Positions 30,410-33,451 of a DNA stretch of 64,000 bases are shown here, piece after piece (the stretch's first letter is position 1; every line of letters starts with the position of its first letter). The notes under the pieces are model-generated. The model searched no databases. It saw only the letters and a list, made by a program, of their open reading frames with translations, and had not been told where the DNA came from. Source of the stretch: Solirubrobacterales bacterium (GTDB lineage: Bacteria > Actinomycetota > Thermoleophilia > Solirubrobacterales > 70-9). The translations under genes and the position numbers were made by a program. The DNA lies in contig JANWHW010000028.1 in NCBI GenBank assembly GCA_025450195.1, forward strand, positions 145,521 to 209,520. Reading direction: 5' to 3'.

Positions 30410-31090
30410 ATGTACATCATCGTCGTTGGCGCAGGAAAGGTCGGTTGGAACCTGGCTCGCGAGCTGCTCGAAAAGAACCATGAGGTGACGGTGATCGAGA
30501 GCAACCGCCGCCGTTACTTGACGGTGGAGCAGGAGCTGGAGCACAACGTCACCTACGGCGATGCTTCCGAGCTCTGGGTCTTGGAGCGGGCGGGGATCCA
30601 GCGCGCAGACATGGTGATCGCCGTGACCGGCGACGACGAGGACAACATGTTGATCTGCCAGGTTGCCCGCGAGAAGTACAACGTCGAGAGGATCATCGCC
30701 CGGGTCAACAACCCCCGCAATCGGGAGCATTTCGACCTGCTTGGCGTCAAACCGTCAGTCTCCGCGACGGACCTGATCTTGCGCCTGCTCGAGCACGAGG
30801 TGCCTGAGTACGGCTTGGTCCACCTCCTCGACCTGACCGAGGAGCGACTCGAGATCATCGAGATTCTGCTCGGTAAGGACTCGCGTGTAATTGGCAACCG
30901 TGTGGGGGACCTGTCGATGCCCGAAGGCAGCCTCTTGATCTCCGTCCTGCGGGAGGGCCGGGGCTTCGTTCCCAACGCAGACACGGTGCTCGAACCCGGC
31001 GACGAGGTGTTGGCGGTGCTCGATCCGGGTAAAGAGGACGACCTCAAGGTGCTCTTTGGCCCAGCGGACAACGGCGCCAGTGGCGGATAG
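30410..31090 (+). CDS. TrkA-family protein (TrkA-N + TrkA-C)
   Basis: MYIIVVGAGKVGWNLARELLEKNHEVTVIESNRRR; C-terminal RCK_C-like segment. Confidence 0.9.
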   Translation: MYIIVVGAGKVGWNLARELLEKNHEVTVIESNRRRYLTVEQELEHNVTYGDASELWVLERAGIQRADMVIAVTGDDEDNMLICQVAREKYNVERIIARVNNPRNREHFDLLGVKPSVSATDLILRLLEHEVPEYGLVHLLDLTEERLEIIEILLGKDSRVIGNRVGDLSMPEGSLLISVLREGRGFVPNADTVLEPGDEVLAVLDPGKEDDLKVLFGPADNGASGG

Positions 31091-32312
31091 GGAGGTCGAC
31101 TTCCTTCTGATCGGAGGCGGCCTCGCCTCGGCGCACTGCGCCGCGGAGCTGCGAAAGCGCGGGACGGAGGGGTCGATCCTGCTGGTCGGGCGGGAGCCCG
31201 AGCTGCCCTACGAACGCCCACCGCTCTCCAAGGAGTACCTGCGTGGCGACGCTGGGCGCGAGGACGCCCACGTCAACACGGCTGGGTGGTATGAGGAGAA
31301 CGGCATCGAGCTGTTGACCGGCGTCAACGTGATGTCGCTTGACCCGGAGGCACGGACGGCGAAGCTGCAGGGTGGCGATGAGGTGGCGTTCGGCAAGGCG
31401 CTGCTCGGGACCGGCGCGATGGTCAACATCCTGCGGGTCGAGGGCGCTGAGAACGAGGGGATTCACTATCTGCGCGCCTTCGGCAACTCCGATGCGATCC
31501 GCGCCGATGCCGAAGCGGCCGAGCATGTAGTGCTGATCGGTGGCAGCTACATTGGCACCGAGGTCGCGGCTTCGCTGGCCGCCAAGGGGATCAAGTGCAC
31601 GATCGGGATGATGGAGGAGGTGGCGCTGTCGCGGACCTTCGGCGAGGACGCCGGGCGCTGGTTCCAGGACAAGCTCGAGGCGAACGGCGTGACCGTCCAC
31701 GGTGGCGAGGAGCTGGAGGCCTTCGAGGGCGACGGACGGGTGAGGGCCGTCGTGACCAAGAGCGGGCTGGCCATAGAGTGCGACACGGCTGTCGTCGGCG
31801 CCGGAGTCCGTGCCGACGCAATGCTCGCGCAGCGTGCTGGGCTCGAGGTCGATGACGGTGTCGTCTGCGACTCGAAGCTGCAGACGTCGGTCGAGGGCAT
31901 CTACGCGGCCGGCGATTGCTGCTCATACGACAGCGTGGTCCATGGGCGGCGGCTGCGAGTCGAGCACTGGGACGTGGCGATGCAGCAGGGAATGCACGCC
32001 GCGCGCAACATGCTCGGCGAGGAGCTCGATTACACGGTCGTCCCATACTTCTTCAGTGATCTAGCCGACTGGGCGAGCCTCGAGTACGTGGGCCCCGCGC
32101 ATGGTTGGGATGAGGAGATTTGGCGTGGCGACCGCGACGCCGGCGAGTTTTCAGTCTGGTACCTGAAGGACGGGCACGTCGCCGGTGCGCTCAGTGTCGA
32201 GCGCTCCGAAGACCTCGCCGAAGCGCGGCGCATGCTCGCCGATCGGGTCGACGTATCCGACGCCCGGGACCGCCTTGCCGATCCCGACAGCAATCTCGCC
32301 GAGATCGCCTAA
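31056..32312 (+). CDS. FAD-dependent pyridine nucleotide-disulfide oxidoreductase (ferredoxin reductase-like)
   Basis: FLLIGGGLASAHCAAELRKRG; VVLIGGSYIGTEVAASLAAKG; GIYAAGDCC. Confidence 0.9.
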   Translation: MAQRTTAPVADREVDFLLIGGGLASAHCAAELRKRGTEGSILLVGREPELPYERPPLSKEYLRGDAGREDAHVNTAGWYEENGIELLTGVNVMSLDPEARTAKLQGGDEVAFGKALLGTGAMVNILRVEGAENEGIHYLRAFGNSDAIRADAEAAEHVVLIGGSYIGTEVAASLAAKGIKCTIGMMEEVALSRTFGEDAGRWFQDKLEANGVTVHGGEELEAFEGDGRVRAVVTKSGLAIECDTAVVGAGVRADAMLAQRAGLEVDDGVVCDSKLQTSVEGIYAAGDCCSYDSVVHGRRLRVEHWDVAMQQGMHAARNMLGEELDYTVVPYFFSDLADWASLEYVGPAHGWDEEIWRGDRDAGEFSVWYLKDGHVAGALSVERSEDLAEARRMLADRVDVSDARDRLADPDSNLAEIA

Positions 32313-32361
32313 GACCCAAATGATCGATCCCACGGCGGGATCCCTCATCCCAGACGGTCAA

Positions 32362-32513
32362 GAGGGATGCCGGCACCCCTCCCCGGGAATTGAGGTCGCA
32401 CGCGCCTACAGCGCGTGCGACTAATGAGGAGCGCGGCCTGCGGCCGCGCAATCATCGGATTGCATATCGCCGCCTTCGGCGACATTCCCGGAGAGAGGCA
32501 CCGGCATCCCCTC
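32362..32513 (-). ncRNA. Candidate structured RNA, copy A (cloverleaf-like, minus-sense)
   Basis: Outer 29/30-nt arms 32362-32390 / 32484-32513 enclosing three hairpins; all 4 arm mismatches become G-U in minus sense; core matches copy B. Confidence 0.55.
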
Positions 32514-32631
32514 AAAGCACCACGAGCTTCGAGAGCTCCACCGCCCAAGCGCCTTCCCCTCCCGAAGCTTCTTCTCAGCTTGGGGAGCCTCGGCTCCGAC
32601 CCTTGAAGCTTTGGTTGCCCAGAGACGTGTT

Positions 32632-32785
32632 GAGAGAGGAGCCTGTTCGCCCTCCAGGCGAATGTCGCGAAGCGGCTATATGCAATCTGGCTCTTTGGCG
32701 CGGCAAAGCCGCGCAGTAGCTTCGGCGCTAAGGCCGAAGGCCTTGCGCCATCAATTCGACTGGAGGGCGGACAGGCTTCTCTCTC
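32632..32785 (+). ncRNA. Candidate structured RNA, copy B (cloverleaf-like, plus-sense)
   Basis: Outer 32-nt arms 32632-32663 / 32754-32785 with 3 mismatches (2 are G-U in plus sense); same three internal hairpins and unpaired motifs as copy A. Confidence 0.55.
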
Positions 32786-32827
32786 CACCGGTGTGGGGTC
32801 GAGCGTCTAGGGCGGTCTGGCTTCTGG

Positions 32828-33451
32828 CTAGTCGAAGACCGCGGCCTGTGCGCTCGAGACCTTGCCACCCCTGCAGGTATGCGGCCCATTGCCGGGAGGG
32901 GGGAGGATCTGGAAATTGGTCACCGAGTGGTAGGGCGTTGCCGCACCGTTGTTCTGCGCCAGCGCGATGACTAGCCGGTAGAACCCGGCCCGGAGGTCCT
33001 GGTAGTAGATCTCTGGCCGGGTCGCCGGGGAGTAGCTGCCGCTGGAGCCGACTCGGGCCGCGAGGACGCCGTTTGGGCCCGCGTAGTGCGGGAAGTCAAA
33101 GGACGCACCGATCAAGCGCCCCCGACCAACGGGACTTTGCTCAGCGCGCTGCAGCTTCACGGGATCAACGCAATCGGGGACTCGGTTCAGCGAGAAGTGC
33201 AGGTGGCCCTCTCGGAGTCGCGGTTCGCCGCCGAAGCGCTCTGGTGCAATCCGGAAGTTGCGAACCTTCACCTTGACGACCACCGCTCCGCTCGTCTGGC
33301 GAGCGCCGTTACGCGGAGAAACTATGACGATGCTCGGCTTCCCAGAGGCTGATTCGGCAGGAGCTGAGTCATCGCCGCCACCGCAGCCGGTAAGTGGGAG
33401 CATGGCGGCAGCCGCGGCGACCGTGGCAAGGATGGCGACTCGGACCCCCAT
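32828..33451 (-). CDS. Secreted lipoprotein, hypothetical
   Basis: Lipobox MGVRVAILATVAAAAAMLPLTGCGGG. Confidence 0.7.
   Translation of the reverse strand: MGVRVAILATVAAAAAMLPLTGCGGGDDSAPAESASGKPSIVIVSPRNGARQTSGAVVVKVKVRNFRIAPERFGGEPRLREGHLHFSLNRVPDCVDPVKLQRAEQSPVGRGRLIGASFDFPHYAGPNGVLAARVGSSGSYSPATRPEIYYQDLRAGFYRLVIALAQNNGAATPYHSVTNFQILPPPGNGPHTCRGGKVSSAQAAVFD

What the first reader, a model, noticed from the sequence alone, without database searches (positions are those of the whole stretch)
32362..32785. Two divergent, diverged copies of a cloverleaf-like structured RNA (or hairpin element) with covariation
Copy A (minus sense) and copy B (plus sense) share a core: GAAUGUCGC(C)-GAA-(G)GCGGC(G/U)AUAUGCAAUC ... 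GCGCGGC hairpin ... 11-bp hairpin ... UCAAUUC. It is enclosed by a ~30-bp outer stem. First hairpin: GUCGCC-GAA-GGCGGC in A versus GUCGC-GAA-GCGGC in B, a compensated one-base-pair indel that keeps the same U-G pair. Second hairpin: GCGCGGCC-GCA-GGCCGCGC versus GCGCGGC-AAA-GCCGCGC. Third hairpin: GUCGCACGCGC/GCGCGUGCGAC versus GGCGC(U)AAGGCC/GGCCUUGCGCC, same length with different sequence (compensatory). GAAU, AUAUGCAAUC and UCAAUUC are conserved outside the hairpins. Outer-stem mismatches resolve to G-U wobbles on the same homologous strand in both copies (4/4 in A minus sense, 2/3 in B plus sense). This argues for selection on a single-stranded fold rather than on duplex DNA. I recognise no named RNA family.
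Basis: partly seen in the sequence, partly recalled or inferred. Interest (0 to 1): 0.88.

Follow-up and report, generated by a model that had tools for sequence, protein, structure and literature searches.

The report
Paired mobile cloverleaf palindromes between genes
Between two genes of an uncultured soil actinobacterium lies a head-to-head pair of long hairpin elements, members of a previously unlisted, lineage-specific family of small mobile repeats (61 copies found) whose base pairing is preserved while its sequence changes, most likely because the folded single strand, probably DNA rather than RNA, is what some unidentified enzyme recognises.

Summary
A (32358-32516, minus) and B (32629-32788, plus) are two copies of one structured element: a ~30-bp outer stem enclosing three hairpins and conserved unpaired stretches. 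They are not an isolated RNA pair. A covariance model found 61 copies in 11 genomes of two related Solirubrobacterales-type genera, 1-17 per genome, and none elsewhere in the class. All 14 complete pairs are head-to-head, and most join two distinct end types. Empty orthologous sites show that the unit was inserted. Base pairing covaries very strongly (score 0.496; shuffles 0.151; slid structures at most 0.098), and G-T mismatches exceed A-C mismatches 31:7 in unique events, so selection acts on one folded strand. RNA is not shown: no promoter, terminator or Rfam match was found, and hairpin loops are mostly GNA triloops, which favour DNA. I read it as a REPIN/MITE-like non-autonomous mobile element whose folded single-stranded ends are recognised by an unidentified enzyme. 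The expected RAYT (Y1) transposase is absent from all 15 genomes tested. Verdict: real, not in Rfam or in the papers I searched, a new variant of a known kind.

The parts
32358..32516 (-). Copy A (end type E1): complete element, outer stem plus core
   Evidence: R1 119.6 bits at 32374-32502
32361..32390 (-). A outer stem, 3' arm (ends inward with ATTC)
32395..32421 (-). A hairpin 3, 12-bp stem
32431..32449 (-). A hairpin 2, GCGCGGCC-GCA-GGCCGCGC
32469..32483 (-). A hairpin 1, GTCGCC-GAA-GGCGGC with conserved T-G pair
32484..32513 (-). A outer stem, 5' arm
32517..32628 (.). Spacer between the 5' ends of the two copies; no promoter-like site found and no gene identified
32629..32788 (+). Copy B (end type E2): complete element
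   Evidence: R1 105.4 bits at 32645-32770
32629..32663 (+). B outer stem, 5' arm
32664..32676 (+). B hairpin 1, GTCGC-GAA-GCGGC (contains GCGAAGC)
32698..32714 (+). B hairpin 2, GCGCGGC-AAA-GCCGCGC
32724..32749 (+). B hairpin 3
32754..32788 (+). B outer stem, 3' arm
31056..32312 (+). Flanking gene: pyridine nucleotide-disulphide oxidoreductase with reductase C-terminal domain; its stop faces copy A
32828..33451 (-). Flanking gene: 207-aa protein without Pfam match, lipoprotein-like by eye; its stop faces copy B (convergent)

Best explanation
A and B are the two structured ends (types E1 and E2, 5' ends inward, 3' ends outward) of a ~430-650-bp non-autonomous mobile element of REPIN/MITE type. 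Each end folds, as a single strand of one polarity, into a long stem closing a multi-hairpin junction. An enzyme supplied in trans most likely recognises this folded end, probably as single-stranded DNA or an extruded cruciform, and moves the unit into intergenic sites. Shown: one family, multiple dispersed copies, insertion against empty orthologous sites, head-to-head pairing, covariation, strand polarity. Inferred: the DNA nature of the selected form, the existence of the enzyme, and current mobility.
For: Family of 61 copies, 1-17 per genome. All 14 same-locus pairs are minus-then-plus. Ten of 14 pairs combine a GCGAAT end with a GGGAAT/GTGAAT end, and the unit occurs in both orientations (window versus G000:C33). 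At atpC/dapE the two genes abut within about 7 bp in G002, G012, G023, G026 and G033, while G037, G031, G029 and G043 carry a pair and G035 one copy there. At the RNase J / histidine kinase site copies occur in G000, G019 and G035, while G001, G002, G012, G037 and G041 lack them, and G019 and G035 keep the native terminator. In G035 many contigs break in the spacer beside a copy, as repeated units would cause. Covariation score 0.496 against 0.151 shuffled and at most 0.098 slid, 25 of 32 pairs changed on both sides. Outer arms pair 94% with their own partner, 57% with other copies'. G-T to A-C mismatches 31:7 in unique events, p about 6e-5. GAA/GCA/GTA triloops dominate; GNRA/TNCG tetraloops are rare, and d(GCGAAGC) is a published extraordinarily stable DNA hairpin (reference seen in PMC2040145). 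Flanking genes tested are ordinary housekeeping genes.
Against: No Y1/RAYT transposase in 15 genomes, including all 11 carriers, no larger copy carrying a gene, no clear target-site duplication, no excision data. E1 and E2 lie on opposite strands, so no one strand presents both in the favoured polarity. Polarity is strongest in G000 (13:1) and weak or absent in several genomes. GNA triloops also occur in RNA.
Confidence: 0.55

Rival explanations
1. A pair of structured non-coding or cis-regulatory RNAs, made divergently or from read-through transcripts and acting as RNA.
For: Covariation, sense-strand wobble preference and conserved unpaired junction bases are classic for RNA. At the dapE site the E1 copy lies on the coding strand directly upstream of the start codon in several genomes.
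Against: No sigma-70-like promoter or intrinsic terminator in the region, no Rfam match, copy number differing widely between relatives, full absence in close relatives, insertion into different gene neighbourhoods, triloops in place of the tetraloops usual in RNA.
Confidence: 0.22
2. A passive palindromic repeat whose stems are kept perfect by template-switch (quasi-palindrome) correction during replication, not by selection.
For: Stems stay perfect in copies whose core is deleted (L054:2487-); other long-stem repeats with unrelated cores occur at the same sites.
Against: Correction would not produce a G-T over A-C excess on one strand nor unpaired bases conserved across strongly diverged copies of two genera.
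Confidence: 0.12
3. A bidirectional 3'-end element (terminator, mRNA stabiliser or insulator) for the flanking genes.
For: Copies sit close after stop codons, often between convergent genes: 16 convergent, 16 codirectional (two of them spurious weak hits), 0 divergent.
Against: The favoured polarity is the strand opposite to the facing gene's mRNA; no T-run; native terminator kept beside the insert; inserts inside the atpC-dapE gene pair.
Confidence: 0.08

Closest known systems
REPINs / REP doublets (PMC3116915) with RAYT/TnpA-REP transposases
   Same: Intergenic, non-autonomous, inverted doublets with a variable spacer, compensatory changes, fold predicted for single-stranded DNA; TnpA-REP acts on one polarity only (PMC8266576)
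   Different: Element ~155 nt with a three-hairpin core instead of a 20-50-nt hairpin; copy number about ten instead of hundreds; no Y1 transposase in the carriers; no GTAG tag established
CGTC-tagged REPs (PMC3733652)
   Same: Head-to-head heterodimers with different stems; no dedicated transposase known
   Different: Short single hairpins of 20-40 bp in other phyla; no multibranched core
Bacillus cereus bcr repeats (PMC6542083)
   Same: 100-400-bp lineage-restricted repeats with mobile-DNA features
   Different: Different host group; mobility linked to a TTTAT motif; head-to-head heterodimeric doublets not reported in the passages read
Enterobacterial RU/ERIC-type MITE repeats (PMC2759123)
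   Same: 127-168-bp intergenic repeats likened to MITEs, not reported to encode proteins
   Different: Other lineage; a structured paired-end architecture was not seen in the abstract read

Membership tests
REPIN (RAYT-mobilised REP doublet) | Two elements in inverted orientation with a spacer | tested here: met
   14 of 14 pairs head-to-head
REPIN (RAYT-mobilised REP doublet) | RAYT / Y1 transposase gene in the genome | tested here: not met
   PF01797 absent in 15 genomes, found in 6 of 14 control genomes
REPIN (RAYT-mobilised REP doublet) | Short 20-50-nt palindrome with a GTAG-type tetranucleotide | tested here: not met
   Element ~155 nt with three inner hairpins; a loose CGTGGGAGGG flank is seen in some copies only
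MITE (non-autonomous inverted-repeat element) | Short, no coding capacity, inverted ends, multiple dispersed copies | tested here: met
MITE (non-autonomous inverted-repeat element) | Target-site duplication and a related full-length transposon | tested here: inconclusive
   No clear duplication; a GTCCCT terminus in some copies only; no longer copy seen
Named Rfam RNA family | Match at the gathering score | tested here: not met
   Best weak hit 30.7 bits against 140 required; no match in 19 related loci
Structured non-coding RNA | Transcript | not testable with these tools
   No RNA-seq available
Structured non-coding RNA | Covariation beyond composition and relatedness controls | tested here: met
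   (shuffled and slid controls); three double-sided changes between each pair of three orthologous dapE-site copies. A tree-aware test such as R-scape was not available

The most novel reading that the evidence does not exclude
A new class of mobile element whose ends are large multibranched cloverleaf folds selected as single-stranded DNA (or as a new structured RNA), moved by an enzyme outside the known REP/IS200-IS605 system.
Probability: 0.3. Interest if true: 0.75.

Novelty: new variant of a known kind. Interest (0 to 1): 0.52.

Why it matters
Covariation in an intergenic repeat is usually taken as proof of a functional RNA. Here the same signal appears in a mobile DNA unit, which makes it a useful test case for telling RNA from folded DNA. 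If the folded end is indeed the substrate, an unidentified enzyme that acts on large branched single-stranded DNA remains to be found in these soil bacteria. The families of variable-stem palindromes in this lineage also show that compact genomes can be shaped by repeats that standard annotation misses.

Tried and rejected
Rfam families: only sub-threshold hairpin-type hits. RAYT/Y1 transposase: absent. Plasmid and phage collections, and a viral contig pattern scan: no match. Spread beyond the two genera: none in 299 relatives and 399 genomes of the class except one weak hit (G099), judged a chance match; the Phycisphaerales and Kaistia hits in the pattern scan were not followed and are presumed chance. 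Intrinsic terminator or sigma-70 promoter: none. An E1-versus-E2 tree: copies cluster by genome, with E1/E2 split inside genomes, so a single ancient split of end types was not demonstrated. Target-site duplication: looked for by eye in flanks and empty sites, not resolved. First two-sequence alignment misaligned hairpin 1 and was not used.

Full report
What is there. The window lies in a 2.18-Mb, 45-contig genome, G000:C28:145521-209520. Copy A (32358-32516, minus sense) and copy B (32629-32788, plus sense) fill the gap between two convergent genes, an oxidoreductase (31056-32312, plus) and a 207-aa protein without Pfam match (32828-33451, minus). Each has an outer stem of about 30 bp enclosing hairpins 1, 2 and 3, with conserved GAAT, ATATGCAATC and TCAATTC. 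B folds at -103.9 kcal/mol, z -10.65.

A family, not a pair. An exact pattern found four copies in the own genome and copies in two relatives, with no hit for the reversed control. A covariance model (R1, built from seven copies) found copies in 11 genomes of 299 relatives. Deeper scoring gave 10 in the own genome and 2, 4, 7, 11 and 17 in five others; with the remaining genomes this makes 61. A class-wide search of 399 genomes found none outside the two genera, apart from one weak hit (G099, 29.6 bits) whose sequence lacks the conserved core and which I judge a chance match. Named records are soil-type Solirubrobacterales and Thermoleophilia MAGs.

The unit. Fourteen loci hold two copies; all 14 are minus then plus, 5' ends facing inward, with spacers of 109-341 bp between model matches and no recognisable gene. 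In ten of the 14 pairs one end has GCGAAT and the other GGGAAT or GTGAAT at the inner stem; the four exceptions belong to one subgroup (G029, G031, G037, G041). In the own genome the A-B unit also occurs flipped (G000:C33) and with B truncated (G000:C25). Several G035 contigs end within the spacer, as expected of a repeated unit.

Insertion. atpC and dapE abut within about 7 bp in G002, G012, G023, G026 and G033, but carry the pair in G037, G031, G029 and G043 (one copy there partly masked as N), and in G035 one copy beside an unrelated long-stem insert. Behind RNase J, copies occur in G000, G019 and G035 and are missing in G001, G002, G012, G037 and G041; in G019 and G035 the native terminator is kept beside the insert. 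Exact ends are not resolved: GTCCCT occurs in 15 of 54 3' flanks against 1.8 expected from shuffles, mostly 21-28 bases beyond the model match and mainly in genus g11; no target-site duplication was found.

Selection on a folded strand. Over 47 copies, 90% of cells pair, the covariation score is 0.496 against 0.151 in shuffles and at most 0.098 with slid partners, and 25 of 32 pairs show changes on both sides. This alignment was fitted to the model, but the outer stem was also tested without gaps: own arms pair 94%, arms of different copies 57%. Three orthologous dapE-site copies differ pairwise by three double-sided changes each. G-T mismatches on the sense strand number 51 against 8 A-C, 31:7 as unique events, p about 6e-5. 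The bias is strongest in G000 (13:1) and rests on few events elsewhere; sense is the more stable strand in 37 of 48 copies with RNA and 36 of 48 with DNA parameters.

RNA or DNA. No promoter-like or terminator-like site was found in 32250-32900 and no Rfam family matched. Loops are chiefly GAA, GCA and GTA triloops in hairpins 1 and 3 and ATA in hairpin 2; GNRA/TNCG tetraloops are rare. In the rest of the window, 4 of 39 triloops are GNA on the plus strand and none on the minus. d(GCGAAGC), present in hairpin 1, is known as an extraordinarily stable DNA hairpin (title of Hirao et al. 1994 as cited in PMC2040145). That the RNA form is much weaker is from memory. I take this as a lean towards DNA, not as proof.

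Position. By a heuristic gene call, 16 loci lie between convergent genes, 16 between codirectional genes (two of these, L049 and L080, are spurious or truncated hits) and none between divergent genes. Most 3' ends lie tens of bases from a facing stop codon. The favoured polarity is therefore opposite to the facing gene's mRNA, which argues against a 3'-UTR function. Avoidance of promoters explains the bias without any function.

Mechanism. The anatomy matches non-autonomous mobile elements of REPIN type: inverted doublets, compensatory changes, single-strand fold (PMC3116915); heterodimers are common in other REP families and CGTC-type REPs lack a known transposase (PMC3733652). But the defining RAYT/Y1 transposase is absent in all carriers and the element is much larger, so I do not file it as a REPIN. 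The mobilising enzyme is unknown; no copy with an internal gene was seen.

Noticed in passing
L121 (G000 atpC/dapE), L113 (G035), L132 (G026), L131 (G033), L154 (G019): Other intergenic inserts with near-perfect outer stems of about 10-20 bp but unrelated cores sit at the same sites; the lineage seems to hold several families of variable-stem palindromes.
   Followed up: partly
L134, L138, L139 (downstream of RNase J in G031, G029, G043): Shorter palindromes with different stems share a loop like CACAGCCTGCC / GGCAGGCTGTG.
   Followed up: no
L045:2528-2655 (G000:C4): A fused element that looks like a deletion between the hairpin-2 regions of an E2 and an E1 copy, removing the spacer.
   Followed up: partly
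L054:2487-2548 and L057:688-770 (G026): Copies with most of the core deleted but a nearly perfect outer stem.
   Followed up: partly
L071:2509-, L073:1645+, L074 both copies (G023): A subfamily in which the ATGCAATC segment is replaced by a CCCCTTT..TTATTCC-like stretch while all stems are kept.
   Followed up: no
L153, L154, L155, L156, L159: A conserved near-palindrome ACTTCACTTTGTATAGTG lies just upstream of the gene next to the window's 207-aa protein homolog in several relatives; possible operator or promoter.
   Followed up: no
L129, L132, L133, L137, L140: The terminator behind RNase J has an unusually conserved interior (GTGTCTGGGGAGAATCCCGGCGGGC) and 3' flank (GTGTCTCGTCC) across species.
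   Followed up: no
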